Of a stretch of DNA of 64,000 nucleotides, positions 26,782 through 58,387 are shown piece after piece; within the stretch, counting starts at the first letter, position 1, and every line of letters begins with the position of its first letter. The position numbers and the translations under genes are program-made. Where the stretch lies: positions 62,001 to 126,000 of the forward strand of contig NC_057321.1 of NCBI RefSeq assembly GCF_000687475.1, read 5' to 3'. Origin of the DNA: Ustilaginoidea virens (lineage: Eukaryota; Ascomycota; Sordariomycetes; Hypocreales; Clavicipitaceae). A model generated the notes under the pieces. The model saw only the letters and a program-made list of their open reading frames with translations. It did no database searches and was not told the DNA's origin.

Positions 26782-26793
26782 CGGGGTTCCCCG
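26782..26793. promoter_or_regulatory. CGG-N6-CCG inverted triplet, possible Zn2Cys6 site
   Basis: CGGGGTTCCCCG is an inverted CGG pair with a 6-bp spacer, the geometry bound by PPR1/UaY-type Zn2Cys6 dimers. It lies about 330 bp upstream of the dioxygenase start. Linking it to any regulator, including the one at 51-53 kb, is inference. Confidence 0.35.
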
Positions 26794-26835
26794 GACGTCG
26801 CGGAGTTCTCAAATGTTCTCCTGCGCACACTTCCC

Positions 26836-26900
26836 AGCTAGCAGTTGGCTAGCTTTAGCCTAGCTCTATTCTAGCATCAGGCTAGCATCAGGCTAGCGAC
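26836..26900. repeat. CTAGC-rich short repeats upstream of the dioxygenase
   Basis: AGCTAGCAGTTGGCTAGC is followed by TAGCCTAGC and two tandem GGCTAGCATCA-type units, then GGCTAGCGAC. GCTAGC is itself palindromic. These clustered copies lie 225-290 bp upstream of the start codon and could be protein-binding sites. No factor is known to me. Confidence 0.45.
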
Positions 26901-27124
26901 GGTCATGGGCTGACGCGAGGCCGAGACTTCATAGACCATATCTGCCCACTTGACAAATAGCGTCTTGGCTCCCAGGCCGCCCCCGTCCGACTTGCTTTCT
27001 CTCAAAAAGGTTAGAGCAATAGCCACGTCGAGTCGTGAACTGAACCAAGCCTCGGTCTCGGTCCATCACAGGCTCCATCACCACAGGTCCACCCATTACC
27101 CAAAAAAAAATCGCCTTCGTCATC

Positions 27125-28273: not shown

Positions 28274-31200
28274 AAACAACAGAGGTCAATACCAGTTGAA
28301 AATTGACACGACAACAAACTTTGATGACGTGGGGCCGCTGCCAAGGCAGAAGGCTCTTTTTCAGTTTATAAATTCTTTTGCAAATGCATATACTCCAACA
28401 AAGTCCAAGACCGTGAACGAAAGACATGACTGATGCGCCACCACGCCGCAATCACGCCACTTGCCAATTCCAGACCCACCAGCAGTCTCCATCGTTCCTT
28501 ACTTGGTACGACAAGGCCCCTCAACTGTCCACCAACCCGCTCCCAACTCACGTGTTCTCATCTTCCTTCAATTGTCAAAATCTTCCTCCGATCGTCCGTC
28601 CACCTTGTACGTTGCAGCTTATGTATTTGCCGAAACCCCCGACGCCCCTTCCACGTCGCCCCCTCATTTCAAAAGTTCCAACAAAGACCTTGCCCGATCC
28701 GCTCATCAAAGCCCGTACGCTTGCCGTAGCCGCTTGAACACGAGTTACACCTGAGCGCACATGCTATGCTTTGTATACGACATACTTCACGACTAGTGCC
28801 TTCACATCCCCCGCTGAAATGGCGCTTGTCGAAACAGGATTCCTGGCGCTGCGGCATCCTCTATCGTCATGCAGGCACCCTGCATGCACGGGTAGGGTTG
28901 TGGATTCATAGTCCACTTGGCCAGGTGGTCAAACACGTGTCTGCATGTACAATGTAGTCCCTGCAGTCGCAGTCTGCACTATGTACAGTTCGGGACGGGC
29001 GCAGCAGCTCTGCCGCCGACAAGTCAGCTCCACCCCACCTCTAGCTGGCCTAGTCGCCCTTCTCGCGTGGCAAGATGCAGTACTTCGTAATACGACAGGA
29101 GCTTGTTGTGAGCCCGTCGTTGCGCACGAGTCGACAGCACAATCTTGTCATGTTCAGAGTCTAGACGCGTGATTCTGCGCCTGCATGCCCATGCCCGATG
29201 GCGCTTCGGGCCACCGATCCGATGCCATCTCCACCGATAATGACACGGTGGTGCGCCACGACACCGTCTGGAAACGTATTAGCGATAGCTTCCACGTCGC
29301 TTTACTTGCTCTGGTTTCGGCGCGTGAAAACGGATAAACGCAAAAGCAAAGAATAAAAACATAAGTTTATGATTGACCGTCCACCCGGCTATCTCTTCAT
29401 CTCCCTCTGTTCCCAGCCGCTCTCCTTCAATATAGATGCATAAATTGCTCATGAAATTTGTTACGTACAAATTCCCATATTCTCTTCATAGTCGGGCCAA
29501 GTCGTCGACGCTCACAGACTTTCCCTTCTTCCAGTCTATTGATCAGCTTCTTGACCATCACCGTGTCGTTCCATCGAAACGTAGGTTATCCAATCGTGCA
29601 ACCATATTGCCCCGTTTGGCCCGCAAGACACTGACGCGCTCATTGTCAGATACTACCATCGCAGCTTACTCTTTACTGAATATTTGCAGTATACCACTTT
29701 GCATCGCTTACGTCTATATGCTTATTTTTGGACATAGTGTTGCCCTGCGGCCCCTATTCATACCACCCCTATGCTCGAAAATCACATCACGGCACTATAC
29801 TACAGCAACCACCTATCTTCTATTAATGGAAACGCCCTAAATCTCTTGTAAGTAGGAATTGCCTCATGCTGCTACTTGTAATCTCTTCTAATATGGCCGT
29901 ACGGCAAGGCCTCACCATTCTTGCCTACCCCCCTCATCCCAGGATGTCATAATACGGCATAGCCTTGCCGCAGACTACTATCTGGATCACTTGTTAAGAA
30001 GTACACGTAGACTACTATCTCTTGGTATCTTCCCATACCTCTATCCCTGAGATTATATACCATATGACGCTACAACTCAAGTACCTATCCACTTACCTCT
30101 TAGGATATTATGTCATAGCACCATCTTGCAGTAATATCCTTTTGATATTTCACGAGATTACTCATATTATTATTATATAAAGTATTATTACTTGGTATCG
30201 CCTTATATTTATATCCCTGGGTGTTGTAGTAGCATTGTATAGTATGTACTCTACCTTCCCTTATAGTATACCTCAAGGTATATATTTATAAGCCGAGGCA
30301 TGAAATATACTATACAGTGATACTGTAATATCTAGCGATATAAATGTAAGGCGATGCTGAGTAATAATACTTTGTATGATAATACTATGGAAATCTCAGT
30401 TTAAATATTAAATGGGTATAACTGCGAGGTGGTGTCGTGATATAATATCCAAAGAGGTTGGTAAATAGGTATTTAAGTCGTAGCGCCATATGGTATATAA
30501 TTTCAGGGATAGCGATATAGGCTGAAAGCAAGAGGTAACCTACGTAAAAATCCTACTTTCAGTAGATTATATCCTTGCGGCCGGACTGCCGCAGTACAAT
30601 GGCACTTTCATGCTGCCGCTGTCGCTTACTCTCTCTAGTCTGGGCCCGATGTAGTTCGTTGGATTGGTCGCTGTGTGTGTCGGGATGAAATTTTGGCTGT
30701 TTTTACTCCTTGGTAAATGCTGGATCCGCTCATTGCGTGGCACCTTTAAAATGTAATGGACGAAAGAGTTGGTGAAAGTATGTATATAGCGCGTTAAATG
30801 CAACCGCATGCTTGCTTTAATAACGATCTTCGAGCACACTCTATCCTGCTATGAAGTGATACGACGGCTGGATTCCTATGAAAAAATTGTTCCTCAAGAA
30901 TCAAGAATGTTATGTGTTGCTTTACTAGTAACCAGGAGTCTATCTTGTAGTCGAAGCTGTATACTCCCGCTGTGTCGAGTTGTGTCAACCGATGGACATT
31001 TTTTCCAGTTTTTAAATTCCCCGCCTTGCATTGTGGACCTACCGCCCTTATTCGACCCAGGTAGTACTACAGCCTGCATGGAAAATTGAGCAACTTGAAG
31101 ATTAATCTAACCTAGATACTTCTTGCCCAACCTCAGCCGGTACTTGATTCCGCGTGAGCCAAGAGACGCCATCTTCCGGAAACCCTGGGGAAAAACTAGT

Positions 31201-41102: not shown

Positions 41103-44100
41103 ATGAATAGGATATTTCTACAAGGACTTGGGCTCCTGGGTATTCAAATATGCTTATGGACAAGAGGAGCTATAGGCGATTGTTCAGATATCACAGTATA
41201 TTATCAACCTCTTCAAGTATACTGCCAAGGAGCAAGTTATGCCTTGACAGGCGCTTAGTAAGTTACGCACCTACATAGCAAGTCGTCGTTGTCAGTGCAG
41301 CATGAAGAAGCTAATTTCTAGCAACAGCACTAGCATAGGTTGTTTAAACGAGGATCATGTTACCACCGCTGTATCCAATACTGGCATCGTTACGACTACT
41401 ACGCAACCGTCAGTCGCCACTCAGCCCGGGTCGGTGACTGGTTCGGCAAGTTCATCGCCCAGTCAGGGTTGTGCGCTTCCAATCACTATCGCGGGCTTTC
41501 AATTATACGGATGCGCATTCTCGGCTGTTGGCTTCCCAGGGTTTATCAAAGTCAATTCGGACAACGCAATGGACCTAGCAAGATGTGCTGCCACATGCAC
41601 AACGCGTTTCATGGGCGTTTATAATACGTGAGTTGCCAATCAAATGCATGAGAATATGTGCTGTTAGCAAATGATAAGGAAACTAATTATTGAACGGTAA
41701 AAAGCGATTGTTTTTGTGGAGACAGAGTCGACGCCAGCCTAGTAACAACCTCGACGGGCATATGCAATATTCCGTGCCCTGGCAATAAGAAGTGGTGTTG
41801 TGGTGGGCAAGGCGTGCAAAGGAGGTCTGACCATCTCTGGAAGCGGCAAATAATAGACTTGACAACCATTGGGTTATCTCTGTACCAGCGACTGCAAGAC
41901 ACGGGTAACAGTGGTACCATATCGACAACGAATCCATTTCAAACAGCATCCTACGTGACAGTAACACAGCCATTCAGTGGGCAAGTCACTGCACCAACAA
42001 CCATTACAATTCCTCCCAGCGGCACAAACCCAGGTAGCGAGGTCGTTATTACGCCGCCGGCAACCGGAATCGTTACGCTCACTCAGGCATTCAGCGGATC
42101 ACTCACAGTACCTACTACTATAACAATTCCACCAAGCGGCACGAACCCCGGCAGCGTAATAGTTCTGACGCCTCCAGTAACAGGGCCCTATGTAACATTT
42201 ACCCAGCCTATCTCAGGCACTAATAGCGTACCGACTACTGTCACCATCCCTCCTAGCGGCACCAACCCAGGCAGTGTGCTTATTATTACGCCTCCAGTAA
42301 CAGGGCCCTTTGTAACATTTATACAGCCTATCTCGGGAACTAACAGCGTTCCTACTACTATCACGATTGCCCCTAGCGGCACCAACCCGGGTAGCGTCGT
42401 TATTATTACGCCGCCGGCAACAGGACCCTCTTATGTGACATTTACTCAGCCTATCTCGGGCCCCAATAGCGTACTGACTACTGTCACCATCCCTCCTAGC
42501 GGCACTAACCCGGGAAGTGTGTTAATCATTACGCCCCCAGCGACCGGTTCCTATGTAACACTTATACAGCCTATCTCGGGAACCAATAGCGTTCCTACGA
42601 CTGTTACAATCCCCCCCAGTGGCACCAACCCAGGCAGCGTGTTTATCATTACGCCCCCTTCGACCGGCTCCTACGTAACATTTACCCAGCCTATATCTGG
42701 TACTAATAGCGTGCCTACCACGATCACTATCCCTCCTAGCGGAAATAACCCCGGCAGTGTACTTATTGTTACGACGCCGACTGCTGGTACTTCCTATGTA
42801 ACGATACTACAGCCTATAACAGGCACTAATAGCGTGCCAACCACGATCACTATCCCTCCTAGCGGCACCAACCCCGGTAGTATACTTATTATTACGACGC
42901 CAGCTACTATTCCTTCCTATGTAACGATATTGCAGCCTATAACAGGCACTAATAGCGTGCCTACCACGATCACTATCCCTCCTAGCGGTACTAACCCCGG
43001 TAGTATACTTATTGTTACGACGCCAGCTACTATTCCTTCCTATGTAACGATATTACAGCCTATAACAGGCACTAATAGCGTGCCTACCACGATCACTATC
43101 CCTCCTAGCGGAACTAACCCCGGTAGTATACTTATTGTTACGACGCCAGCTACTATTCCTTCCTATGTAACGATATTACAGCCTATAACAGGCACTAATA
43201 GCGTGCCTACTACAATCACTATCCCACCTAGTGGCACTAACCCCGGCAGTGTGCTTATTGTTACGACGCCAGCTACTATTCCATCCTATGTAACGATATT
43301 ACAGCCTATAACAGGCACTAATAGCGTGCCTACTACGATCACTATCCCTCCTAGCGGAACTAACCCCGGCAGTGTGCTGATTATTACAACGCCGACTGCT
43401 GCTCCTTCAACTGCTGGTCCTTCCTATGTGACGATTTTACAGCCTATAACAGGCACTAATAGCGTGCCTACTACAATCACTATCCCACCTAGTGGCACTA
43501 ACCCCGGCAGTGTACTTATTGTTACGACGCCAGCTACTATTCCATCCTATGTAACGATATTACAGCCTATAACAGGCACTAATAGCGTGCCTACCACGAT
43601 CACTATCCCTCCTAGCGGAACTAACCCCGGTAGTATACTTATTGTTACGACGCCAGCTACTATTCCTTCCTATGTAACGATATTACAGCCTATAACAGGC
43701 ACTAATAGCGTGCCTACTACGATCACTATCCCTCCTAGCGGAACTAACCCCGGCAGTGTGCTGATTATTACAACGCCGACTGCTGCTCCTTCAACTGCTG
43801 GTCCTTCCTATGTGACGATTTTACAGCCTGTAACAGGCACTAATAGCGTGCCTACTACAATCACTATCCCACCTAGTGGCACTAACCCCGGCAGTGTGCT
43901 TATTGTTACGACGCCAGCTACTATTCCATCCTATGTAACGATATTACAGCCTATAACAGGCACTAATAGCGTGCCTACCACGATCACTATCCCTCCTAGC
44001 GGAACTAACCCCGGCAGTGTGCTGATTATTACAACGCCGACTGCTGCTCCTTCAACTGCTGGTCCTTCCTATGTGACGATTTTACAGCCTATAACAGGCA

Positions 44101-47100
44101 CTAATAGCGTGCCTACTACAATCACTATCCCACCTAGTGGCACTAACCCCGGCAGTGTACTTATTGTTACGACGCCAGCTACTATTCCATCCTATGTAAC
44201 GATATTACAGCCTATAACAGGCACTAATAGCGTGCCTACTACGATCACTATCCCTCCTAGCGGAACTAACCCCGGCAGTGTACTTATTGTTACGACGCCA
44301 GCTACTATTCCTTCCTATGTAACGATATTACAGCCTATAACAGGCACTAATAGCGTGCCTACTACGATCACTATCCCTCCTAGCGGAACTAACCCCGGCA
44401 GTGTGCTGATTATTACAACGCCGACTGCTGCTCCTTCAACTGCTGGTCCATCCTATGTAACGATATTACAGCCTATAACAGGCACTAATAGCGTGCCTAC
44501 TACGATCACTATCCCTCCTAGCGGCACCAACCCCGGTAGTATACTTATTATTACGACGCCAGCTACTATTCCTTCCTATGTAACAATATTGCAGCCTATA
44601 ACAGGCACTAATAGCGTGCCTACTACGATCACTATCCCTCCTAGCGGCACCAACCCCGGTAGTATACTTATTATTACGACGCCAGCTACTATTCCTTCCT
44701 ATGTAACAATATTGCAGCCTATAACAGGCACTAATAGCATGCCTACAACGATCACTATCCCTCCTAGCGGCACCAACCCAGGCAGTGTGGTTATCGTCAC
44801 AACGCCATCGTCAGGAGCGTCCTTCGGGCCGTCTTCAGGGCCGGCAACGGGACCATCATCAGCGCCGTCATCAGTGCTATCATCAGGGCTGGCAACTGGA
44901 CCGTCATCAGCGCCATCATCAGGGCCAGGATCCGGGTCAGCATCAGGGTCAGCGTCAGGGCCATCTTCAGCGACGTACTACATGACATTTGCACAGCCTA
45001 TCTCGGGCACTAATAGCGCGCCTACTACGGTTACTATACCCCCTAGCGGTACCAACCCAGGCAGTGTTATTATTATTACGACGCCATCATCAGGTCCGGC
45101 ACCGGGGATGTCATCTGGACAGTCTTCCGGGCCATCGTCAGCGCTGTACTATGTGACCTTTACACAGTCACTCTCTGGCACGTATAGCGTTCCTACGACC
45201 GTTACGGTACCACCTAGTGGCACTTACCCAGGAAGTGTGTTCATTCTTACCCCTTTATCAACTATTAGTGCTTCCATCACTTTCCTTACGCAGACATCTC
45301 CTGTTACTTCGGCCGTAGCATTGACAAGCTCTACTTCTTCTGTACTTGCTTCCCCATCTATAGCATGTAAACTCCGAGGAGGGCCTACAAGTTCTAGATG
45401 TCCGCCTTTCCGGACAATACAAAACGGCGCTGGTACCTATGCTCTTTGTCAACAATCCTGCCAAAGCCTTGCAAATTGCGCGTCCTTTGCGATAAGTGCT
45501 ACTCAGGATGGCAGCTGTTTTCTATATAGTTATACAGCTCTTACCTGTGCTAGTGAATCTGGGGATGGTTTCTTATTTTCTGATGCAGGGTGCCCTATTT
45601 ATCCCTCGTGCTTAATTGAAGGGGGACCGACTTCAAATGCCTGCCCACCTTATAAGGTTGTCTCGGGTGCTAGCACCCTCGCCCTCTGTCAACAGTCATG
45701 TTCTAGGGATTCTTTATGCCAATCTTTTGCTATCGGAAGGGCGCAGAATGGTGATTGTTTTCTATATTCTGAATCTGCCCTTACCTGTGCTAGCCAACCT
45801 GGGACAGGATTTTTCTTCTCTGATACAAATTGTCCGGCAATTTTGAGTCCTTATTGCTTATTAGAGGGCGGGGAAACTTCATCTAATTGCCCGCCTTATA
45901 GGACTATTGTCACAGGTGCTGGTACCGTTGATCTCTGTCAAGCGGCATGTTCTAGTGATCCTATTTGCCAATCTTTTGCTGTTGCAAGGGGTCAAAATAC
46001 CAAGTGTTGGATTTATACTACTTCAGCTCTTACTTGTGCTAGCCAGCCGGGGAATGGCTTCTTTTTCTCAGATACGAATTGCTCTTCTACTATAACACCG
46101 CCTTTCTATCCGTCTTTATCACCTAGTTGTAAACTCCGAGGAGGGCCTACGTCTTCTTCTAGATGCTTGCCTTTCCAAACAATTGCCGATGGCTCGAGTA
46201 CTTACGCTCTCTGTCAACAATCCTGTCAACGTACTGCTAATTGTAACTCCTTTGCAATAAGTAGTACCCAAGATGGCGCCTGTTTTCTTTATACTTACAC
46301 CGCTCTTACATGTGCTAGTGAAACTGGAAGTGGCTTTTTATTCTCTGATGCAAGCTGCCCTATATCACCTTCATGTTTAATTCAAGGGGGAGAAACTTCA
46401 AATGCCTGCCCACCTTATAAGACAATTACTTCAGGTGCCAATACTGTATCACTCTGCGAACAAGCCTGTGCTAGTGATAATTCATGCTTCTCTTTTGCTG
46501 TTGCAACAGGTCAGAACCGTTATTGTTGGCTTTATGCTTATTCTGCTCTTTTATGTGGGAGCCAGCCTGGGACAGGATTTTTCTTTTCTGATAAAAGTTG
46601 CCCTAGAACAATCTCAACCCCCTCCTGCTTACTTGAGGGCGGGGAAACTTCATCTAATTGCCCGCCTTATAGGACTATTGCTACAGGTGCTAGTACTGTT
46701 ACACTATGTCAAATGGCATGTTCTAGTGATCCTTTTTGCCAATCTTTTGCTGTTGCAAAAGGTCAAAATACCCGGTGTTGGCTTTATGCTACTTCAGCTC
46801 TTACCTGTGCTAGTCAGCCAGGGAATGGCTTCTTTTTCTCGGACAAAAATTGTTACTCTCCTCAAGGTTGGGTTACGCTTACACAGGCATTTACCGGGTC
46901 CCTAACAGTAGCCACCACTGTAACTATTGCGCCTATCGGCACTATTCCTGGCAGTGTGCTCATTATAACGCCCCCGACAATAGCCCCTTCTGTTGCAGTT
47001 ACGCAGTCTCTTTCTGTTTCTGGAATTAGTAGCTTTATACCTTATACTGTGACACAAACCATCACGCAGGCTGGGACAACATTTATTCAAACTGTTGTCA

Positions 47101-47945
47101 TTACACCATCTCAAGTCATAGGCACGTCCTCATCTTTTCCTGTGCCGACGTCGACACCAAGCCTCACCCTACTTTACAGATGTACCACTCTTAGCAGTGG
47201 CCAACATTTTGAGAGTATCAACTCTCAATGCGAAGGACAGCATACAGACGGTCCTATTGGCTACATCTATACTCTTTCGTCGTCAGTTCCGGGTACTACT
47301 TTACTTTATCGGTGTACTATTCCAGCCACATCAGACATTTTTTCTAGCATTAATCCGGCTTGCGAAGGTAATCATCTAGATAGCCTTATGGGCTACGTTT
47401 ATCCACCCTCTGCCAATATCACAAATACAACTGGAATATACCGCTGTGTTATTAAAAGTGGTAGTTACCAGGATCATTTTGAGAGCACCAATCCAGCATG
47501 CGAGGGTCAGTATACAGACGGGCTTTTAGGATATATCTTTCCTTTGCAGCCTACGACATCTAATCTTACTTTACTTTACAGATGTACCACTGTGGGCTCT
47601 GGGAATCATTTTGAAAGTATCAACTCGCAATGTGAAGGCCATCATGTAGATGGTCCTATTGGCTATATTTATACTCTGTCGTCTTCAGTTCCGGGAACTA
47701 TTTTACTTTTCCGGTGCACTATTCCTAGTACTGGGGATATTTTTTCCAGTATTGATCCTCATTGTGAAGGTCAGACGGTAGATGGTGTTATGGGGTTTGT
47801 ATATCCTTTAACTTCTACAATTCCAAATACTATCAAAGTATACCGTTGCGTTATTCAAAGTACACAAGATCATTTTGAGAGCACTGATCCACAATGTGAG
47901 GGTCAGCATGTGGATAACCCTCTTGCTTATTTAATTCGCCTATAA
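41103..47945 (+). CDS. Giant secreted WSC / flocculin-repeat / Apple-module surface protein, about 2,240 aa
   Basis: Proposed exons are 41103-41257, 41301 (or 41322)-41627 and 41705-47945. The second intron ends AAAAAG|C, so that the WSC motif YNTDCFCGDRVDAS is restored. The N-terminus (MNRIFLQGLGLLGIQICLW) looks like a signal peptide. A WSC-like domain spans about residues 117-205 (LYGCAFSAVGFPGF, MDLARCAATC, CFCGD, ICNIPCPG, WCCGG). Residues about 243-1350 are some 25 copies of a 40-45-residue repeat (YVTILQPITGTNSVPTT, ITIPPSGTNPGS, LIITTP), rich in Thr/Ser/Pro and similar in style to yeast flocculin repeats. Six Cys-rich Apple/PAN-like modules follow (about 1381-1880), then one stray repeat, then six YRC...HFES..CEGQ..D...GY modules (about 1980-2240). 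No GPI-type tail is visible. It is probably a cell-wall adhesin or sensor-like surface protein; ligand unknown. The start has no upstream in-frame alternative in the A+T-rich leader. Confidence 0.85.
41950..45275 (+). repeat. Coding tandem array, about 25 units of about 120-140 bp
   Basis: Each unit encodes a VT..QP.(S/T)GT.S.PTT(I/V)TIPPSGTNPGS.(L/V)I(I/V)T.P segment. Units at 42.79-44.78 kb are nearly identical (123 bp, or 138 bp when the TPTAAPSTAGPS linker is present), while units at the left end (41.95-42.78 kb) and right end are diverged. This is the usual picture of recent amplification in the centre of an adhesin array. A second, degenerate spacer of GPSSGP/APSSG repeats lies at 44.81-44.98 kb. 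Confidence 0.92.
45366..46858 (+). repeat. Six Apple/PAN-like modules arranged as two A-B-C triplets
   Basis: Each module of about 76 residues has the pattern C-L-x-G-G-x-T-S...CPP(Y/F)..I..GA.T..LCQ..C.....C.SFA......CF/WLY...LTCAS..G.GF.FSD..C. Modules 1 and 4 begin CKLRGGPTSS, modules 2 and 5 begin CLI(E/Q)GG.TSNACPPYK, and modules 3 and 6 begin CLLEGGETSSNCPPYRTI. Modules 4-6 are therefore a duplicate of 1-3. The Cys spacing suggests a disulfide-stabilised PAN/Apple-type fold, commonly used for protein or carbohydrate binding. Confidence 0.85.
47161..47942 (+). repeat. Six C-terminal YRC...CEG modules, again two triplets
   Basis: The modules of about 43 residues follow L-Y-R-C-x6-9-(H/I)F-x-S-x2-P/S-x-CEG-x3-D-x2-(I/L/M)GY. 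Modules 1 and 4 share TTLSSG/TTVGSG and SQCEG, modules 2 and 5 share DIFSSI, and modules 3 and 6 share CVI..QDHFEST. The spacers TLSSSVPGT (after 1 and 4) confirm duplication of a triplet. They resemble the small repeats annotated as DUF5648-like in other proteins. That resemblance is from memory and unconfirmed. Confidence 0.8.
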
Positions 47946-49395
47946 TTTAGGTGATATTATTTAAATATTAAGTTTGCTTAATTTGAAACTTAAGATTTAT
48001 ATTTTACTTAACTAAATGTTTCTTATTTTTCCTGTTGATGTATTATAGTTTTAATGTATATAGAGAATAATAACTAATAAAGAAACTTGCAACGGCTACC
48101 GCTGTACGGCAGCTTCCACCATCACTACCGCTGCTACTGTATCATTGGGGCACTGCTGCTGCTATTACCGCGGCGGCTTCCACTATCGCGGCTGCATCTA
48201 TCGCTACGTTTCACATATGACGGATTGACCGCCTGACGCACCGTTCGACATTTTCTAACAGGTGTTGCAAAATGGTGGCTTAGAACACCGTTGGAAAAGT
48301 GGGCTAAGCACCGGCAGTGGCGGACAAGGCGTTGTTATAATAAAACAAAGGCTGGTTAAAGATTTAAATGCACGAGAGGTTGACCAAGGCGAAGAAGTCA
48401 GGGAAATCTGTTTCTAATTATTGGTGATTATTCTATCTAGAAAGAGGGTATTCTAGACCTATTTCTACTGCCTTGAAGAGGTAGTAGAAAATCATGAGAA
48501 GCCGTAGAAAATAGCGAAAAACCTGACAAAAAAGTCGTCGTGCCCAATCGTGCCCAACCGTGCCCGACCTAGCCCAATTCCTACCAAATCCTACCGAACC
48601 TAGCCCAGTGGCTAGTAGCGGTATGCCGGATGCCTTATAACAGCCCACCGTAAGGACCGGAGGCCCCATTATAGTATGCCGTAAAGGCCCGGTATAGCGA
48701 GAGACCGTAAGTAGAAGGCCGAAGGTGCCAGTATTCTGGCTGGGTTGACCATTTGGTAATCCCGTAAGAAATGTGCCGCCCGTAGTGAGGCCCTGTGGTC
48801 CGCTGTGTCCGGCCGCTGTGGCCGGACGTGGCCCACTGTAGCCGGTGCTGTGACCGGCGTGGTGCCCCACTGTATCCGGCGTTGTGGGGCGTTGTGACCT
48901 ACTATGATGCCTGGTAAAGCCACCGCAATATATCGACGTAGCGGCTATATAGTGACGAGACCAGTACCAAAATGCAGCTTAAAAGGCGCTGATTTCAACA
49001 ACTATGGATATTGTCAAAGTCTGGCTCGGTTACGCCTCTAAAACATTGGTAATAATAGCCCCTTAGAGCTGTCCCTGTTCCCACTATAAATGGCTAGCGT
49101 AACGAGTCTGAGTCAGTTGGGCTCGCTATTACGGGGGCTCGTTATTATCAATTAATTTTATTTCGGTTTTCCCCTATGCATTGTGACAGCCACTAAGCAA
49201 GTCAACTAACTGCGACTTCCTCGAAACTCTATTCCAAACAACGCACGCTTCCATCGCGACAGTCCTGGAACTATAACCGGCAATAGTTAAACCCAGAATA
49301 CGAAAATAGAAAAAAAAACAGGTCGACGACTTAAAAAGTGTCGAGAGCTAAAAACTTGCCACAAAGCATATGCAAGACCAGGGGAGGCGAGTAAA
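47946..49395. other. Spacer with repeat-like sequence, no gene
   Basis: The first about 140 bp are A+T-rich and include the likely polyadenylation region. 48.09-48.21 kb is CCGCTGC/TATCGCGGC-rich low-complexity DNA. 48.54-48.62 kb contains tandem CGTGCCCAAYCGTGCCCAA-type words, and 48.78-48.90 kb carries repeated GGCC..TGTGGCC and CCGG..GTTGTG words. This looks like a decayed repeat family. No protein domain was found. Confidence 0.45.
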
Positions 49396-50520
49396 ATGTC
49401 CAACGACATCCAGCCAGAGCCACGCCAGGCTCCATTCATCTTGAAATCGTTCCGCTTACAACATTGCCATGGGCGGCTCAGGCTAAGGTGGCTTATCCGC
49501 AGCCATAGCGTTCCGCAGGCAGGCCAGTGTCACCATATGGTAAGATGTCAAGGAGAGGTTGGTGCGCTCTTAAGCGCTTCAAGCAGATTCCGATTCCGGC
49601 TAGTACGGGACGCCGACATTTCCAATGCCCGACGGTCATCCTGAAACATTTCATTAGATACGATGGGTAGACTGGACATGTTCCGGCACGTACTCTCTCG
49701 GAAACTCTCGAGTGCAGTTCGGCACCAACTGCAACACCTTCCACAGAATTGGTCTTCACCAGCTTCCGAAGCAAGCTGCCAGGTCTGAAGGCGGCAAAAG
49801 CGCCCTGTCTGGTTCGGCATCCGGCGCAAAGATGTGGATTTAGATCTCATAACCGGCAACGTCATGTTCGAAAACGGCGTGTGGACTGCTCATGACGTCG
49901 TTTGCGCTGACGGCATTCACTATCAGATGCGCGAGACTCTCCATTGCTCCGCGCTTCTATCCATCTGCATATGCTGTGGCCGCTGCTAAGCCCTGCTGAT
50001 AAGCTTCGGGATATCGGCCCTGGGAGGTTGCCGAGAATGGCGCGTTCCAATTCTGAGGCGGTGACGGCAACGACGACGTTGCGGGTGCTGGTTCTGGCCA
50101 CGACGTTGTCAGCTACTACTGCGTTTACGCTGCAGAGAAGAATGGTCTGAAGACGGCTGGAGTGTTTCGTCCGCAGCCGGGAATCCGGCCGTCACGTTTC
50201 CATACCTTCATGATAGGGAAGGTCGTTGCCCCTGATGCCGAAGACATCAAGATGTGGCAGTTGAACCCCCCGACTCATATACGCCTTGGGTCAAAGGCAA
50301 ATGCTGCCTTCTCGGCGACGCGCTCATCCCACGATGCCGTATCAATGGCAGGGAGTCTGTGTTGCCATTGAGCATGCAGGAGCTCTTGGGATCCTCGTCT
50401 CACCCAGGTAGGCGCGCTCACATTGCCGAGACGCTTCACCTGTACGAGCTGCAGGGCAACCTCGTGCCACCCGAGTGAAGGATAGGAGCGTCGAGCCGGA
50501 GTCGACCTGACCCAGCTATA
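49396..50520 (+). pseudogene. Broken FAD-dependent monooxygenase (salicylate-hydroxylase-like)
   Basis: Fragments in changing plus-strand frames follow the order of class A flavoprotein hydroxylases. An N-terminal ATG with MSNDIQPEPRQAP lies at 49396. At 49.83-49.95 kb are KDVDLDLITGNVMFENG, VWTAHDVVCADGIHYQMRE and TLH, matching the DG/ADG segment of the second FAD motif. At 50.23-50.38 kb are KGKCCLLGDA then, one frame over, AHPTMPYQWQG and VCVAIEHAGALGILVSP (the GDAxHP motif that binds the FAD ribityl/pyrophosphate). Near 50.43 kb is ETLHLYE, and at about 50.46 kb RATRVKDRSVEPEST. Frame changes are needed near 49.98, 50.29 and 50.45 kb, and the N-terminal GxGxxG site is not recognisable. 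Such enzymes make catechol from salicylate. Original specificity cannot be told. Confidence 0.75.
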
Positions 50521-50629
50521 GGTTGAAGTAGCACCGACGGCTCAGGCGAACGAAGCATCGAGAAGAATGCGGTTACCAAATGCATGCCCATGGGACGCCA
50601 ATCGCTGAGCAGCACGCAGCTGGAATCAG

Positions 50630-50942
50630 GAATCTCAGGGATGAATATTTCGAGGTATTTCCAGGACGTATCGGCGATTTCCATAGATAAATCGTGTAAA
50701 GCGCACGCTGGAATCATGCGCCCAGGATGAGTACTTTCGAGGTATTTCTGGAACACATCGGGCGATTTCCATGATCATGAGCCCCAGGATGAATACATCC
50801 AATGTGTTTCCAGAGCGCATCGGCGATTTCCATAGACAGGTCATGTAAAGCGCACGCTAGAACATGAGGATGGCACTTCCAGCGCGTTCCCACAACATAT
50901 CGGGCAATCTCCGTGCCCAGCTCGTGTAAGCGACGCACCACA
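50630..50942. repeat. Four imperfect tandem copies of an about 90-100 bp unit
   Basis: Recurrent words are GATGAATA..TTCGAGGTATTTC, CATCGG(G)CGATTTCCAT and CGTGTAAAGCGCACGCTGGAA, in the same order about every 90-100 bp. The last copy is the most diverged (CATATCGGGCAATCTCCGTG). The array lies immediately downstream of the zinc-cluster regulator, whose stop is at 50973, and partly overlaps no recognised gene. On the minus strand it reads ACALHDLSMEIAD repeatedly, so it may derive from a coding repeat. Confidence 0.75.
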
Positions 50943-50972
50943 CCAACCAGTCACGCCGTCACAAGCGAGCCG

Positions 50973-52970
50973 TCAAAACACCACCAGCCCATGCATCTCG
51001 TAGTACCGGATCTTCGCCCAGTTCACGACGGCCCCCGTCCCCCTTGACTCATCCCTCCTCGACCAGACGCGCTCCACGAGATCTCGAGCGTTGTAGATGT
51101 ACCCGAACCCGCAGGTCCGCTCCATCACCAGCAGCCTGTCCTGGATGATGACCCGGTGCTCGAGCTTCCAGCACGACCCCCCGGCCATGACGAGCGGGAA
51201 CAGGATGCAGGGCTCCAGGGGGCTCCCGTAGCGGATCCTCTGGACGCAGTCGAGAATGCCGTCGACGTGCCTCCCGACCTTGGGGTCCGTCAGCTCGTAG
51301 CCCTCCACAATCTGGTGGAGCCTGAGCCGGATGGCGTGCTCGAAAGCCAAGGTGGCGTGCAAGACGTCGTCGGTGTTGGGTGTCGGCGCGGACACGGCTC
51401 GCGCGATGCCGCCGTATTCGCAGGACCAGTTGTTGATGCGGTGCTCGATGGCGTTGGCGTGCCGCCGAAAGGCGATTTCGGAGGCTTGGTCGACTCGGGT
51501 GCTTCGCAGCTCGGCCAGGGTGTTCACGCGGTCCACCAGGTGGAACAGCTCCTTGGGGATGCCGTACACGGCCGAGTCCTCTTCGTCCGGGGTGGCGGAC
51601 CAGGTGTCGAGAGCCTGGGCCTCGGCAGCTTCGGCCCCCATGAGCGGCGGCCGGCAGGTCGAGGTGGTGGCGGCGGAGTCGAGAAATCGGGCGAGTCGGA
51701 GGAGGAACTTGTAGTGGCCAGTCATCATGGCGCCTTGCTGCTTCCGCAACGTGATGAGCAACCGTTTTGCGCCTTTGAGATGCAGCTTCCACCCTTCGCT
51801 TGTGCCGTCGAACAGCTCTGTCATGCAGAGAAGCAGGCTGCTGACCAGCGCTATATCGGCGCTCGTCCTGTCGACATGGGGAAGAATGCCCGCCAAGGCC
51901 TGCGTGGCTTTGCTCTTGTGCAGCAGTCCGCGGTCGCCCAAGTCCGGCTGCAGCTTGCGCCAGTGGTTTGCCGACAGCGCCAGGATGCAGTGGAGGACGA
52001 GGTCGTTGGACTGGGCCATGGGCAAGAGGTAGCCGTTGTAGGGGTTGTCTACCGATGACCGGCGGGACAGTATCGAAGAGACGATGGTGGAGTAGTGGTT
52101 GAGCAGGGCCTTGTCTTGCGGGGCAATCAACTGCGGCATGAGCTGCGGGACGTAGATGGACAGCGACGACGGTGCCGAGTGTACGGAATCGAGGGATGCG
52201 GCTGGACTGTTGTTGCTGACGGGAGTAACTGCGTCGAGCCAAGCGGGAGGCGAGGCCGATATGTCCCACGACAGCCTCGAGGGGCTCATATCAGGGGTGA
52301 GCCCGCTAAAGACGCCAGACGTGACGGGGATGGCGGCCGATAAGGGGATTGCCATGGCGGTTGTGGCCATGGTCATCAGGGAAGAGTAGTTGATGGGGCG
52401 GTTGAAGTCTGCGTAAGTGTCGGGAAAGCTCAGCTGAGCGCCATGGCCGGGGTGACCGTGTTGGCTCGGGGTGTCGTAGCTTCCGTGCCCTCCGCTGCTG
52501 GAGCTGGACGAAGGGCTGGGGCTGCCGCGGATGGGAATATCGCGCATCAGCAACACGTCGGGCTCCTGCTTGAAGCTGCTGCCGGTCGGGATCGGCGCGA
52601 CCAGACCGGAGTTAAGGCGCGCCAACGCGTTGAGGGGCTCGTCGGCGACCGCAGAGCCCGGCTTGGCGGACCTCGCTTGTCGCTCTTGCGGCCAGGTGCA
52701 TTCGAGGCACAAGCGCCGACAGTCGCCGCATCTCGGCTTGGTCTCGTCGCACTTCTTCTTGCGCCTCTTGCACATGAGGCAGCCTGTCTGGACCCTCCGG
52801 ATCTTGGCCTTGGGTACATCGCCGTAGGGGAAGTCGTCGCCGGAGCCGGTAGTGTTCCGTAAGCGACACGGCAGGCTGAGGCGCACGCAACGCGCGCAGG
52901 GAAGGTTGCCGTCACAGGCCTGTTTAATCTGCGCACAGCGATGACAGACTGGCCGGGTCTCTAGGCCCAT
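50973..52970 (-). CDS. Zn2Cys6 transcription factor with two tandem zinc clusters, 665 aa
   Basis: A single uninterrupted frame. Two complete binuclear clusters lie at the N-terminus: C9, C12, C19, C25, C28, C35 (loop AQIKQACDGNLPC, few basic residues) and C64, C67, C74, C81, C84, C91 (KRRKKKCDETKPRC, the classical basic DNA-contact loop). Low-complexity Ser/Gly-rich sequence with SPSPSSSSSSGGH follows at about 150-166. A Fungal_trans_2-type regulatory domain (PF11951, as in acriflavine-sensitivity regulators) begins near LNHYSTIVSSILSRRSS (about 290), with LALSANHW, LLLCMTELFDGTSEGWKLHL and GAKRLLITL, and ends near LLVMERTCGFGYIYNA. It is a nuclear regulator; target genes are unknown. Neighbours are the monooxygenase relic and the HSL hydrolase, which fits control of a catabolic locus (inference). 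An A/G-rich, T/C-rich stretch at 53030-53085 lies upstream. Confidence 0.92.
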   Translation of the reverse strand: MGLETRPVCHRCAQIKQACDGNLPCARCVRLSLPCRLRNTTGSGDDFPYGDVPKAKIRRVQTGCLMCKRRKKKCDETKPRCGDCRRLCLECTWPQERQARSAKPGSAVADEPLNALARLNSGLVAPIPTGSSFKQEPDVLLMRDIPIRGSPSPSSSSSSGGHGSYDTPSQHGHPGHGAQLSFPDTYADFNRPINYSSLMTMATTAMAIPLSAAIPVTSGVFSGLTPDMSPSRLSWDISASPPAWLDAVTPVSNNSPAASLDSVHSAPSSLSIYVPQLMPQLIAPQDKALLNHYSTIVSSILSRRSSVDNPYNGYLLPMAQSNDLVLHCILALSANHWRKLQPDLGDRGLLHKSKATQALAGILPHVDRTSADIALVSSLLLCMTELFDGTSEGWKLHLKGAKRLLITLRKQQGAMMTGHYKFLLRLARFLDSAATTSTCRPPLMGAEAAEAQALDTWSATPDEEDSAVYGIPKELFHLVDRVNTLAELRSTRVDQASEIAFRRHANAIEHRINNWSCEYGGIARAVSAPTPNTDDVLHATLAFEHAIRLRLHQIVEGYELTDPKVGRHVDGILDCVQRIRYGSPLEPCILFPLVMAGGSCWKLEHRVIIQDRLLVMERTCGFGYIYNARDLVERVWSRRDESRGTGAVVNWAKIRYYEMHGLVVF

Positions 52971-54622
52971 GTCGAAGAGCGTGGTATCGACAACGCTTTG
53001 CGCTTTCCTTTCGTCGTTCTGTCCTTCCTTGCTAATTTCTTCTTCTTATTTCTTTCTTTTCTTTTCCTTTCTTTTTTTTTTCACACTTTATTCCGTTCGT
53101 GCCATTCGAGGTGCTTCCGGGAGGCGTCGAGTGGATCGAGGCGGTCCTCGACCCGCCGGCTTAGGCGTCCAGCAATCCAAGTCGAGTGGGACGGAAATGT
53201 ATGTTTTCGACAAACAAAAGCGCAGAAAACCCTCTCCAGAGATGGAAAGCGTCACATCGACCACGGGCTTGCAGGAAAGCAGGTAGCGGCAGGGCTTGGA
53301 CGGTTTACGGTTTGGAGGAACAAGATTTCCAAACGTGATCTGGCAGCGCAGCGAGGGGGGAGGAAGGGTGGGCCGGGGGAAGTTGGAGCCTCGCGGCTTG
53401 GCTTCAGATGCAAGTATCAACGGGACGGACGGCGGCTAGCTACAAAGCATTGACATTGTCAATGGCCTGCCACCAGGCAGGTAGGTGCTCCTGCCCAACC
53501 AGAGATGCCAGCCACACAAGGCATGTGGGCAGGGATCTCCCAGGTGCGGGCAGCAGTGGCGGCGCCATCCCGTGCTGGGGCCAATGGTGGCCCTTTCCAT
53601 AGCCAGAGGTGGGGCAGGGCGTAATGGCCGTCTTGGCGAGGCTTGGGTCCCAACTCTAACAGCAAAGGAGGCACTGCCACTACGTGGGTGTACTTGGGTA
53701 CCTGGGTGGGAGGAGAGGCTATTCCCAAAGCAGGAAGAAAAAAAAAGAAAAAAAAAAGAAACGCAAGCAAAGAATACAAAGCAAACAAAAAACGGGTCAA
53801 GGATTGCCGGCCAAATTGCCGGCAAAACCCAAGTGGGCCGCGAATCCTTGCTGGGCAGGGGCAGGGGCCGGGGTGTCGCGTCGTCGCATGGTTGGGGGTG
53901 ACGGAACCATGGCCGAATGCGAGGCAGTCCCCCCCCCGTGGCTTCGCCCCCGACAATAAGCCCTCCGATGGCAACAATAATAAGCCGGGTAGGATTGTGG
54001 GATCAGGGCCCTCCGTATTACGGCCAGTTGCCGCCCAGCTATATGTGCTGCTCCTCCCACCTGTATTTTTTCTGTCTCGAGCTTATCGCGGAAATTGCAT
54101 GTGGTCACTTTGAGTCCCTCGCACAATGCAGCCAGCCTCCTCCAAGTGCAAAGACGCAGCCAGGGCGCCACCGGCCGCCGTCGCTGGTTGGCGCAAGGCA
54201 CCAAGATGCTCCTTTTTACCTCCTGGCTGGAGGGTACATGCAGGTAGTTGACCCAACATCGAATTACACGCTGGAGCATTTTCGTTGGAGGACTCTGAGC
54301 GGCAGAGGAAGCCGGCAGCAGCCACTGGGGCTTGCCGCGTGTACTTTCTGACGCATATCTGCCTTGCGCAAAAGTTGCATGTATGTTTGTTGCACGTCAC
54401 GTCACATGCCGTTGGCAGATGACATATTGATCAAAGACATCAGCAGCACTGGCGGCCTCTGACTGGAGCCTGCTGACCGAGACATGCTGAGACTACGGGG
54501 GAGCACAGCGGTGTGTGTCAGCGTGAGTCAGGCCGCCAATCCGCCAATCCGCCAATCAGCACAAGGTCTGGGTACATCCGAAGCACCCAGCCAAAGAGAC
54601 TTGGCGCTTAGCTTGCCCCCCA

Positions 54623-54636
54623 GCGGAGTACTCCGC
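54623..54636. promoter_or_regulatory. Perfect 14-bp palindrome GCGGAGTACTCCGC
   Basis: An exact inverted repeat with no spacer, in the intergenic region between regulator and HSL hydrolase. Related copies are listed in the findings. CGG..CCG symmetry with a GAGTACTC centre could suit a dimeric Zn2Cys6 factor, or could simply be a dispersed genomic motif. Confidence 0.4.
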
Positions 54637-55599
54637 GTCTGGGATTGCTACATAAAACAGCCCTACGGGATGGTCTCGGGGCGAAAAAAGAACAAGAAAA
54701 AGAAAAAGGAAAAAAAAAGAAAAAGAAATAAAACAGACCAGGTTGCACCAACCAGACCATAGCAGCGTCTCTGACGCAGCCCTTTGGACCGCCGTCCCAT
54801 CCCATCCCCGATCGCTGCCGAACCAGCTGCCCTGCCCGTTCTTCCCAGATTCCCCCCCGCGTCGCGTCGAGTCCGCCACGCCACCCCGCACGATCAGGCT
54901 GGGGTGCCCCACTGGGGCGATTACATTGGCCATGATAGTGACAGTGCTGTCGCACAGTCTCTCGGCGGGCGAGTCCCTCGGCTGACTCCGTACTCAAGAC
55001 AAACGCATCCATCCCGACTTCTTCCGTCAGCGACGGCACCAAGATGACTTGCTCCGTTCCCATACCTGCGTGGTACATACGTAGCAGGACGGAGTACGGA
55101 AGGAGCAGAGGTGAAAAGGAACCAGCCCGCGCAGGGATATCGCTCCGTGACATCCACTCTGCTGGGCTTCCCGGCTGAGTTGACCCTGAATACTCCCCAG
55201 TTGTCCGCGCTTGGCGACGCCCCGATTTATGTACTGGCCGTGCATCCTAGCTGCCCATTGCCGCCCCACCACGGGGGGTGGTAAATCTGAGTTGACCTCC
55301 TATTTTGAATTTCGGATGCTGCGGGGAGGCGAGGACGGGCTGCTATTGTGGTGCGTACCTACCTGCTACTTTAGGTACGTACCCACTTACCCCCAGCCTG
55401 CGAGGCAGGCGCACGACGGCGTCAGAGTGCGTCCTCTGAAAGGCGGTTCCTCCGACCGTTGGTCAGCATAGGGATTCATGACTGATCCTTCCCCGCGATT
55501 GCATATGCTCGCTTCTTACTCCGTACATTCCAATTTACCCCGTGTCTCAGTTCCTTTCTCCATCTGAATGTATTTCTGGACATGACCAGGCAGTGGGTA

Positions 55600-55611
55600 C
55601 GGAGTACTCCG
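55600..55611. promoter_or_regulatory. Palindrome CGGAGTACTCCG, with a near copy at 55639-55656
   Basis: An exact 12-bp palindrome. The second copy, GTACGGAGTGTTCCGTAC, is symmetrical except at its centre. Both lie about 1.6 kb from the HSL hydrolase start, on the far side of its gene, so a direct promoter role for that gene is unlikely. Confidence 0.4.
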
Positions 55612-56148
55612 CAACCGGTGCACTGTTGTCCGCAGCGCGTACGGAGTGTTCCGTACCGTCCTAAAATAATAAAGCCTGAAAAGGACACATCATCTGCATT
55701 GGACTTGAACGAGCAGATTTGTCTGCATGTACTCCGTGCTCTGCACATATTACCCTAGCTTTTGTCTCTCGTCCGTTGGATCGTGCTCAAGTCTCCTTGA
55801 GGTCACCCGGTCTCCGACAGGCATGTGGACCTCCTGCATAACAGGCACACGAATCCAACCGCAAGTTTCATCTTGATAGAGGTCCTTATGCCGGCCTCTC
55901 AGGCACAAGTATCTTTGGCAGAGCCCAGATAAGCCATATGCTAGAATGTTGTCTCCTCTTTGCCTCGCGGCACAAATGTCGACCACTAGAAAATTTCTCT
56001 TTCCATCCTGGCCATGTTTTTCGCCCCATTTCACACGGCGTCGAACCGAGTTGCGGCGTCTTATATCTCGACCCAACCTCTCCACGAGAAATACCCTTCT
56101 GCATCGTTTCCCATGCGGTGGCTCCATGCCGCATAAGCGCGCCCAGTG

Positions 56149-57207
56149 CTACAAGTCGTAAAGGGCAAGGCGGATCTCCCGTGCCGTCTTGTCGATGAAT
56201 TCGCTGGCCTGCCACAGATCCTTGTCCATGTGCATAAAAGGATGCGGCACCCCGGGGAATCGTCGCAGTGTCACCTCGATGCCATTCTCCACCAGCACCC
56301 GGGCATATCGCTCGCCTTCGTCCCGCAGCGGATCAGCGCCGGCAGTGTAGATGACCGTTTTGGGGAGGCCCTTGAAGCTGGGCGCCTGAAGCAGGTTCGC
56401 GAACCAGGCCACCTTCTCTCGAGCGGCCCCGTGGCCCTGTGCGTCGGCCGGCAGGGACGACCACTTGAGCTTGTCGAACCAGGCCAGCCGGGCCCAGTTG
56501 AGCGTGGGCGCCCACTCGTTTTCCTGCATCGACGGGAACGGCGACTCGGCCGCCGACGAGTACTGCGACAGGTCGTCGATGACGGGGGTTCCCACAATCA
56601 CCAGCTTTACGGGCACCGGGGTGGGCTTGTTGTCGCGCGCGAGGTGCGCGAGGGCCAGCGCGATGCACCCTCCCGCCGAGACGCCGCCCAGGGAGATGCT
56701 GTCGGGCCTGATGTTGAATCTCTCCGCGCCGTGGGCGTGGACGTACTTGAGGGCGGCGAAGCTGTCTGTGATGCCGACGGGGAAGGCATGCTCGGGAACC
56801 AGTCTGTAGGCCACGTCGACGACGACGACATTGGCCTTTTTGCAGATGTGCTTGCAGATGTGGGATTCCGTGTCGAGATCCCCCAGGGCCCAGCCCCCGC
56901 CGTGGTAGTCGATGTGTGCTGGCCACGGGCCCTTGGAGTCTGGCTCGTAGACCCTCACGTCGAGCTGCACGTCACTGCCGTCGCCCAGCGGGATTCGGTC
57001 GTCGTATACGCGTCCCACGTCGGGGGCCGGACCAGTCCCGTAGCTGTATAGTTCCGAGTACTTGGATCGGAGTGCACCCAGGTCGATTGGTCTCAATGGT
57101 GTGCTGGCCACGTTGTCGTTGTATAGCTTTTCGAACACGGGGTCGAGCTTGCCAGCCATGGAAGGGTGGATAGGCTGCAGAGCCTCATGCGTGCCCTCGG
57201 AGGCCAT
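56149..57207 (-). CDS. Alpha/beta hydrolase of the HSL (fold-3) family, 352 aa
   Basis: Intronless. The family hydrolyses carboxyl esters or lactones. The oxyanion motif HGGG is at 102-105 (IDYHGGGWALG). The nucleophile Ser177 lies in LGGVSAGG, where most members have GDSAGG, so a Val replaces the usual acidic residue. The acid is probably Asp292 in TAGADPLRDEGERYA and the base His322 in GVPHPFMHMD. DVAYRLVPEHAFP is the typical DYRLAPEHPFP segment. The N-terminal cap (MASEGTHEALQPIHPSM...KLYND) is of normal length and there is no signal peptide, so an intracellular esterase is likely. The start at 57207 gives the expected length; the leader is A-rich (57300-57345). Substrate is unknown. Confidence 0.9.
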   Translation of the reverse strand: MASEGTHEALQPIHPSMAGKLDPVFEKLYNDNVASTPLRPIDLGALRSKYSELYSYGTGPAPDVGRVYDDRIPLGDGSDVQLDVRVYEPDSKGPWPAHIDYHGGGWALGDLDTESHICKHICKKANVVVVDVAYRLVPEHAFPVGITDSFAALKYVHAHGAERFNIRPDSISLGGVSAGGCIALALAHLARDNKPTPVPVKLVIVGTPVIDDLSQYSSAAESPFPSMQENEWAPTLNWARLAWFDKLKWSSLPADAQGHGAAREKVAWFANLLQAPSFKGLPKTVIYTAGADPLRDEGERYARVLVENGIEVTLRRFPGVPHPFMHMDKDLWQASEFIDKTAREIRLALYDL

Positions 57208-58387
57208 GCTGGGGAAGAATGTGGGCCTCTTTTGACCGTGGAGTGTAGGTTTGTGACAGGCGCAGATTGGAGATGAACCGCATGGGAATTTGGCTCGAAT
57301 TTTTTGCGCTTTTTTTTAAAAAATGAAAAAAAAAAAAAAATTGTCCCGGAGAGATTGACCTGGCTGTGATTGAACCCCGCCCGCCCTGTCAAGAAATGGT
57401 GATGTGAAGTGACGGCTGCGGGGCGCCAAGCGGAAACGGTACCAGCCAGTACGGAGCACTCCGCAGACAAAAGTAGGTACTATCTTCTCCGTACAGGGGT
57501 GTGGATGCCCGTCGGTAGGGAGGAGCTTGACGCATAAACCCGCGGAATGATTAATCCGGCCACTAGACTCGAGTTAGTACATATCTACATCTCACACAAA
57601 GCCGAGCAGACGGCCCAGAATTTGCAATCCTGCACGGAGGATCCCCCATTGTTAAACCCTGGCTCGCGATAACACCGCGCTAGCAGGGGCCGCAAAGATG
57701 CCTCCAAGAGGCTTAGCGGGCCGGGAAAGCGCAATTCTGCCGTGATCCACGCCAGATAATAGTCGCGAAACCCACAAAGTTGGCTAAATGGCATAAGAGA
57801 CCTCCACTGTCCTTTTTTTCCAGTGGGAAAGGTATGAAGAACTCGCCCCAGGAACCAAGCTCACAGCCTTGGGCAAGGCTGGGTCCACATAGTACCTAAA
57901 CTTATGGCGGCTTGCTGGGGGTTCATGAGGAAGACGATGAAGAGTCCAAAGAGTCATTAAGCAAAGCTGTCGAGAGAAGATAATGGCTCGCTTGAATGCT
58001 TGCCTGGCCCTGCGGAGCGTACACTGCATGGCAAAGCAAAGGAAACTTCCTTTCCAGCTCGAGCAGAACGTTTCGCAGGCGTTTCACGTCACGAATTGGA
58101 TGTCTACTGCTGACCATCTGCAAATATCATTGCCATGGAAACATGATGCAAGTTGTAACTTTGGAAAGGAAAAAAAAAGCATGTCAACTCCACGGGTAAA
58201 TAGACCAAGAAACCTGTATCCTTCGTTCCCTTCCCTACAATAACAATGCGGTGCTCGTTCTGTCTCCTACGCCAAATCTTTCCAACTTATGTAAAACATG
58301 CGTTTCATCGTATACATCGTAAACATTATAACGCAAAGATCAGCATTCGTCGTCGCAGCGAGTTCTGTAAGCTTCGAAGTTTCCACA
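57208..58387. other. Spacer between HSL hydrolase and membrane-protein gene
   Basis: Contains the hydrolase promoter with an A15 run near 57330-57342 and a CGGAGCACTCCG palindrome-like site at 57452-57463. A 29-bp sequence almost identical to one at 38.66 kb lies near 57673. The 3' flank of the membrane-protein gene follows. No gene is recognised. Confidence 0.45.

What the first reader, a model, noticed from the sequence alone, without database searches (positions are those of the whole stretch)
41103..47945. Very large mosaic surface protein combining WSC, flocculin-like, Apple-like and YRC/CEG modules
One gene joins four module types not usually seen together: a WSC domain after a signal peptide, about 25 Thr-rich repeats, six Apple/PAN-like modules and six small C-terminal modules. 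The mix of putative carbohydrate-binding ends and a long stalk suggests an adhesin or wall sensor of unusual build. I know of no named protein with this exact order.
Basis: partly seen in the sequence, partly recalled or inferred. Interest (0 to 1): 0.75.

Follow-up and report, generated by a model that had tools for sequence, protein, structure and literature searches.

The report
Fungal adhesin with possibly nicked anchor
This fungal gene encodes a giant sticky surface protein, one of about 19 sister genes that share a wall-binding start and a long stalk but carry different sugar-binding tips, and its wall-binding part has a conserved site where the cell's own processing enzyme may cut it.

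Summary
One intact gene (exons 41103-41257, 41322-41627, 41705-47945; 2233 aa) encodes a signal peptide, a WSC domain, 25 Thr/Pro-rich repeats, six PAN modules, one more repeat and six C-terminal modules (two DUF5648-like triads; AlphaFold pLDDT 91.5 for one). It is not a one-off. The same genome (37.16 Mb, probably Hypocreales) holds at least 19 genes with this WSC type: by position 11 end in GLEYA lectin domains, 6 in DUF5648-like domains, 2 are unresolved. The sister at C6:148959 has the same order with three PAN modules and is a chimera: its start matches a gene on C2 (91.9%), its head matches this gene (87.4%). There is no GPI or membrane anchor. I read it as a reverse-polarity adhesin: N-terminal WSC anchor, stalk, exchangeable C-terminal heads. 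New point: all 15 members whose letters I hold carry an insertion between the WSC CGG motif and its last strand, with R-Q in 15 and [KR]R-Q in 14, like a Kex2 site; 49 ordinary WSC domains lack the insertion. Cutting would leave the stalk held only by beta5. Cleavage, expression and binding are inferred, not shown.

The parts
41103..41257 (+). Exon 1; signal peptide aa 1-25 (41103-41177) by inspection
   Evidence: gene model
41258..41321 (+). Intron 1, GTAAGT...CTAG; acceptor chosen by likeness to sisters (NSTSIGC)
   Evidence: other in-frame acceptors exist
41322..41627 (+). Exon 2, with the first half of the WSC domain
41628..41704 (+). Intron 2 (77 nt, GTGAGT...AAAG), inside the WSC domain
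   Evidence: sister C4_2695 without it
41471..41891 (+). WSC domain (intron 2 included), from the family's extra Cys to the beta5 segment SLYQR
   Evidence: Pfam PF01822 39.3 bits, cut-off 27.8
41841..41849 (+). K-R-Q, putative Kex2 site (cut after aa 201) in the insertion between CCGG and beta5
   Evidence: [KR]RQ in 14 of 15 members, RQ in 15 of 15
41892..45365 (+). Stalk: 25 repeats of about 40 aa plus Ser/Pro spacers, 1158 aa, 22% Thr, 16% Pro, no Cys
45366..46853 (+). Six PAN modules in two sets of three
   Evidence: PAN_4 60.7 bits, PAN_2 35.9 bits; places
46854..47168 (+). Spacer with the 26th stalk repeat
47169..47540 (+). DUF5648-like triad 1 (three YRC..HFES..CEG..GY modules)
   Evidence: AlphaFold pLDDT 91.5, pTM 0.83
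47571..47933 (+). DUF5648-like triad 2; stop codon 47943-47945

Best explanation
A secreted, wall-attached adhesin of reversed polarity. The N-terminal WSC domain docks in the fungal wall, a Cys-free, probably O-glycosylated stalk of 25 repeats reaches outward, and the C-terminal PAN and DUF5648-like modules bind glycans on a target. It belongs to a family of at least 19 genes that keep anchor and stalk and exchange heads by recombination. Shown: gene, modules, family, conserved dibasic site, chimeric sister. Inferred: expression, wall docking, glycan binding. Further inference, less certain: Kex2 cuts the loop before beta5, so anchor and stalk are two chains held by the inserted beta5 strand.
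For: Modules and gene model. Nineteen places of this WSC type in the genome, stalk repeats seen in 18 of them (C1_3880 not seen). Heads assigned by place: 11 GLEYA, 6 DUF5648-like, 2 unresolved. Four of the six DUF genes score above the Pfam cut-off: C2_5815 98 bits, C2_6592 61, C2_5616 83.9 (C-terminal piece), C6_58 30.6. No GPI- or membrane-like C-terminus: highest 19-residue hydropathy in the last 80 aa is 0.78. Exchange: C6_149 and C2_6592 are 94.1% alike in 236 bases of 5' flank and 91.9% over signal peptide plus WSC, but their heads only 49.0%, while the heads of C6_149 and this gene are 87.4% alike. Nick: RQ 15 of 15 and [KR]RQ 14 of 15, the R 11-13 residues before the beta5 aromatic, which is 23-29 residues after CCGG; in 39 other WSC domains the first aromatic is at median 7, range 1-9. 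PMC9024836 (passages): loop L5 ends just after CGG, and beta5 lies between beta1 and beta3. In this gene no Cys between aa 201 and 1375. [quoted passage not shown] PMC12853789 (passages): DUF5648 linked to glycan recognition.
Against: No expression data and no binding data. Binding of this WSC domain to glucan is untested; PMC9024836 reports no apparent ligand pocket in Wsc1. The kexin gene search did not complete. One of 15 members (C2_5815) has GRQ instead of a dibasic pair. C2_6592 has a broken frame in the stalk. Two of 19 genes have no head identified. This gene's DUF5648 score is under the cut-off, C6_149 gave no DUF5648 match at E <= 0.01, and single triads gave none in 26 of 26 rows.
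Confidence: 0.68

Rival explanations
1. The WSC part is only a cleaved pro-region: Kex2 removes it and the 2032-aa remainder is released as a free multivalent lectin, with no wall anchor.
For: Conserved KR/RR before Q; in this gene no disulfide can bridge the site with the stalk, because no Cys follows until aa 1375.
Against: The segment after the cut keeps a beta5-like strand in all 15 members seen, expected if it must stay in the WSC sheet. Pro-regions are usually not complete conserved domains (general knowledge).
Confidence: 0.15
2. No cleavage takes place: the dibasic loop is chance or a basic patch, and the protein is an ordinary single-chain WSC adhesin. (Not exclusive of the anchor-stalk-head reading, only of the nick.)
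For: Only sequence supports cutting; one of 15 members lacks the dibasic pair; no kexin gene could be looked up.
Against: Loop length and sequence vary, yet RQ is kept in 15 of 15 and its distance to beta5 is 11-13 residues. The insertion is absent from 39 WSC domains of other proteins and 10 of this genome.
Confidence: 0.35
3. The architecture is ordinary and widespread in Hypocreales, merely unannotated because repetitive genes are badly predicted.
For: GLEYA and WSC expansions are reported in nematode-trapping fungi (PMC3828140, passages) and nine GLEYA proteins in Drechmeria coniospora (PMC4792172, passages).
Against: No fungal member of the family appeared in two protein searches, although the database holds Hypocreales proteins. 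But this gene and its sisters were not listed either, so the absence means little.
Confidence: 0.4
4. A membrane wall sensor of the Wsc1 kind.
For: N-terminal WSC followed by a Ser/Thr-rich region, as in Wsc1 (PMC9024836, passage).
Against: No transmembrane-like stretch: the highest 19-residue hydropathy is 1.62, in the spacer with the 26th repeat, and the protein ends four residues after the last C-terminal module.
Confidence: 0.03

Closest known systems
Fission-yeast type adhesins with C-terminal GLEYA or DIPSY domains
   Same: Repeats and a C-terminal sugar-binding domain (PMC13147542 passage); GLEYA adhesins with signal peptide and repeats, without GPI signal (PMC6308950 passages). Eleven sisters here carry GLEYA heads.
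   Different: Here an N-terminal WSC domain precedes the stalk and this member has PAN plus DUF5648-like heads. In the passages seen no WSC anchor was mentioned.
Flo/Epa/Als yeast adhesins
   Same: Long Ser/Thr-rich stalk and a binding head.
   Different: They have an N-terminal head and a C-terminal GPI signal (PMC6308950 passages). Here the polarity is reversed, no GPI-like end is seen, and Pfam flocculin/ALS repeat models do not match.
Wsc1-type cell wall integrity sensors (PF01822)
   Same: N-terminal WSC domain, then a Thr/Ser-rich stalk.
   Different: No membrane segment or tail; an insertion with a dibasic site before beta5; two extra Cys, one before the domain (6 of 6 members checked) and one in CCGG. 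Their pairing is inferred.
Actinobacterial LamG proteins with DUF5648-like tails
   Same: C-terminal modules of the same Cys pattern, six by eye, in two triads.
   Different: Bacterial, LamG body, and one module of each triad is a Cys-less DUF5648 type (by eye).
DUF5648 C-terminal domains of Bacteroidales BSAP toxins
   Same: DUF5648, three-bladed propeller, proposed glycan recognition (PMC12853789 passages).
   Different: There it targets a pore-forming protein; here it would tip a stalk.

Membership tests
WSC domain (PF01822) | Pfam score over the cut-off | tested here: met
   39.3 bits spliced, cut-off 27.8
WSC domain (PF01822) | beta5 follows the CGG motif directly, as in ordinary WSC domains | tested here: not met
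   Aromatic of beta5 23-29 residues after CCGG in 15 members; first aromatic at median 7 in 39 other domains
Wsc1-type sensor | Transmembrane segment and cytoplasmic tail | tested here: not met
   Hydropathy scan
PAN/Apple | Pfam score over the cut-off | tested here: met
   PAN_4 60.7 bits (cut-off 27), PAN_2 35.9 bits (cut-off 21.1)
DUF5648 (PF18885) | Pfam score over the cut-off | tested here: inconclusive
   22.4 bits against 25 for this gene; no DUF5648 match in 26 of 26 single triads nor in C6_149 at E <= 0.01; four sisters over the cut-off
DUF5648 (PF18885) | Three-fold repeated propeller-like fold | tested here: inconclusive
Flo/Als adhesins | Flocculin or ALS repeat models in Pfam | tested here: not met
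   No match up to E = 1
Flo/Als adhesins | C-terminal GPI signal | tested here: not met
   No hydrophobic C-terminus by hydropathy; no GPI predictor was run
C-terminal GLEYA adhesins | GLEYA domain | tested here: not met
   No match in this protein up to E = 1; placed in 11 of 19 sisters
Kex2 substrate | Cleavage after KR/RR | not testable with these tools
   Motif present; cleavage needs protein work

The most novel reading that the evidence does not exclude
The family uses a nicked WSC domain as a break-away anchor. Kex2 cuts the loop before beta5, so the wall-bound WSC shell and the stalk become separate chains held only by beta5 between beta1 and beta3 (strand complementation). Force or pH could then release the whole stalk and head, and free strands might even swap between shells.
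Probability: 0.35. Interest if true: 0.85.

Novelty: new variant of a known kind. Interest (0 to 1): 0.6.

Why it matters
How adhesins with C-terminal heads and no GPI signal stay in the fungal wall is left undefined in a review passage, which only says an alternative attachment is suggested (PMC6308950). A WSC domain joined to GLEYA or DUF5648-like heads in 17 of 19 sister genes is a direct candidate answer, and the conserved dibasic loop makes a specific, cheap test possible. The chimeric sister shows how a fungus can vary what it sticks to while keeping one kind of anchor and stalk.

Tried and rejected
Beta-trefoil: I first guessed this fold for the triads. The PDB search gave a trefoil only at E 1.6 with TM 0.20, and PMC12853789 calls DUF5648 a three-bladed propeller, so I dropped it. 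Single-sequence AlphaFold of the six modules failed (pLDDT 33.8). PDB sequence search with the triad gave nothing useful, best E 0.45. Viral fold library: 126 matches at E <= 10, one at E <= 0.001, an unnamed 427-aa viral protein, TM 0.74; not followed. RIP: the stalk has a RIP-like index (0.95) but is coding and intact; I ascribe this to codon make-up. Subtelomeric family: rejected. The five C6 copies lie within 155 kb of a contig end that shows no telomere repeat, and other copies lie far inside contigs. Dropped rows: of the 40 matches I left out 3 (C1:4937548, C2:861635, C4:3175771) as ordinary WSC genes; the other 37 fall on 19 places. In one search the family's first spacing row was miscounted by a loose pattern (range 11-29); one search corrects it (23-29). 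One search's pattern missed one member (C4_4871, seen), so 14 rows there and 15. For 4 of the 19 (C1_3880, C2_5616, C4_2677, C4_4892) the WSC letters were never fetched, so nick counts are of 15.

Not in print, as far as searched: (open PMC papers only); 'WSC domain' + 'Kex2' + 'cleavage' gave 0 papers. Papers were seen as listings or passages, none in full.

Full report
What is there. A conserved neighbour protein (56149-57315) finds as its best named relative one of Tolypocladium ophioglossoides at 84% identity, followed by Hirsutella, Claviceps and Trichoderma among others; Tolypocladium is in Ophiocordycipitaceae, Hypocreales. I infer a hypocrealean fungus. TTAGGG arrays lie at or within 4.3 kb of both ends of contigs C1-C4 and C7, at two far-apart places of C5 (its length was not shown), and only at the right end of C6.

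Gene. A frame of 2083 aa runs from 41694 to 47945. With two introns the protein has 2233 aa. Intron 2 lies inside the WSC domain; the sister C4_2695 has no intron there and reads through the same junction. Intron 1 has several in-frame acceptors; I took 41321 because sisters share NSTSIGC or a close form there. Order: signal peptide (by inspection), WSC, 25 repeats of about 40 aa, six PAN modules, one more repeat, six small modules. Pfam: WSC 39.3 bits spliced, PAN_4 60.7 bits, DUF5648 22.4 bits with a cut-off of 25. The stalk of 1158 aa is 22% Thr and 16% Pro and has no Cys. The C-terminus has no hydrophobic signal.

The family. The WSC query gives 40 matches; 3 are ordinary WSC genes, and the other 37 fall on 19 places. 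In C4_2704 and C4_4871 the repeats are divergent. I placed GLEYA matches (16 places) and DUF5648-like matches (12 places) on the 19 by contig, strand and distance: 11 of 19 have GLEYA, 6 of 19 DUF5648-like, 2 of 19 neither (C4_2704, C4_4871). Three GLEYA and two DUF places belong to none of the 19. PAN modules like this gene's were found only here and in C6_149 (6 of 6 matches in these two genes).

Head exchange. C6_149 and C2_6592, on different contigs, are 94.1% identical over 236 bases of 5' flank and 91.9% over signal peptide plus WSC; their DUF heads are 49.0% identical, near the level of unrelated pieces in the same measure (42.1-47.7%). The DUF head of C6_149 is 87.4% identical to this gene's, while their starts are 65.1% and their 5' flanks 47.7%. 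blastn agrees: similarity of this gene to C6_149 is lost across the PAN block and returns at 46914-48027, at 85.4% over 47139-48027. So C6_149 joins a start of one lineage to a head of another. The direction and date of the exchange are not shown.

The anchor. PMC6308950 (passages) says adhesins with GLEYA lack GPI signals and that a C-terminal ligand domain suggests an alternative wall attachment; it adds that Epa1 does need its GPI anchor. PMC13147542 (one passage) says fission-yeast flocculins commonly carry GLEYA or DIPSY at the C-terminus. An N-terminal WSC is a fitting anchor. The title of Wawra et al. 2019, seen only in a reference list, names WSC3 a beta-glucan-binding lectin. Against this, the Wsc1 structure shows no apparent ligand pocket (PMC9024836, passages).

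The possible nick. In all 15 members whose letters I hold (this gene included; 4 of 19 not held), an insertion lies between CCGG and the last strand. R-Q is in 15 of 15 and [KR]R-Q in 14 of 15; C2_5815 has GRQ. The R is 11-13 residues before the aromatic of beta5, which is 23-29 residues after CCGG. Controls: in 39 WSC domains of three other proteins the first aromatic comes at median 7 (range 1-9) and 1 of 39 has a dibasic pair in the next 20 residues. In 10 distinct WSC domains of this genome the strand also follows at once by eye; 7 of 10 have the aromatic at 7, two have an earlier Trp, and one has an aromatic-free strand. Two of 10 have a dibasic pair, both after the strand. In Wsc1 the L5 loop ends at A103 just after C98-G100, the sheet order is beta1-beta5-beta3-beta4-beta2, and the disulfides are C27-C86, C49-C69, C53-C71 and C90-C98 (PMC9024836). 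That SLYxR here is beta5 is inferred from position and likeness. In this gene every WSC Cys lies before the site and the next Cys is at aa 1375; the other members were not checked for this. If Kex2 cuts there, only beta5 holds the stalk. Kex2 sites are Lys-Arg (PMC6044549 passage); that fungal secreted enzymes often start with Q after such a site is recalled. Whether a kexin is encoded could not be tested.

Reading. A reverse-polarity adhesin with a WSC anchor and exchangeable heads: likely (0.68). The nick as a working break-away anchor: possible (0.35). The finding is more interesting as a family than as a single odd gene. It is a new variant of a known kind. How widespread it is I could not settle: two protein searches showed no fungal member of the family (one search gave two eukaryote transcript proteins and a WSC copper-oxidase-like protein, none with the stalk), but they also did not list this gene or its sisters, so such proteins seem poorly covered.

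Noticed in passing
G000:C2:6592458-6598282 (L078): Sister gene with its stalk frame broken (249-aa and 1736-aa frames overlap); could be a pseudogene or an assembly error in the repeats.
   Followed up: no
window 8001-22000: AT-rich block (GC 0.31-0.45) with RIP-like dinucleotide indices, against GC 0.51-0.60 at 24001-30000 and 50001-64000.
   Followed up: partly
window 50973-53045 (-): Zn2Cys6 transcription factor with Fungal_trans_2, 186.8 bits.
   Followed up: no
window 56149-57315 (-): Abhydrolase_3 esterase; used to place the fungus near Tolypocladium.
   Followed up: yes
window 27384-28043 (+): Part of an intradiol dioxygenase-like gene (Dioxygenase_C 28.7 bits).
   Followed up: no
L014:775-1911 (C4:4894039): Small secreted-looking protein of three DUF5648-like modules without WSC or stalk, next to the GLEYA-headed sister C4_4892; not scanned with Pfam.
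   Followed up: partly
L015:1504-3186 - (C7:505722): DUF5722 protein (119.9 bits) with DUF5648-like modules at its C-terminus (14.3 bits, under the cut-off).
   Followed up: no
G000:C2:5883883-5884200: GLEYA domain in a 1256-aa frame with no family WSC found within 8.5 kb.
   Followed up: no
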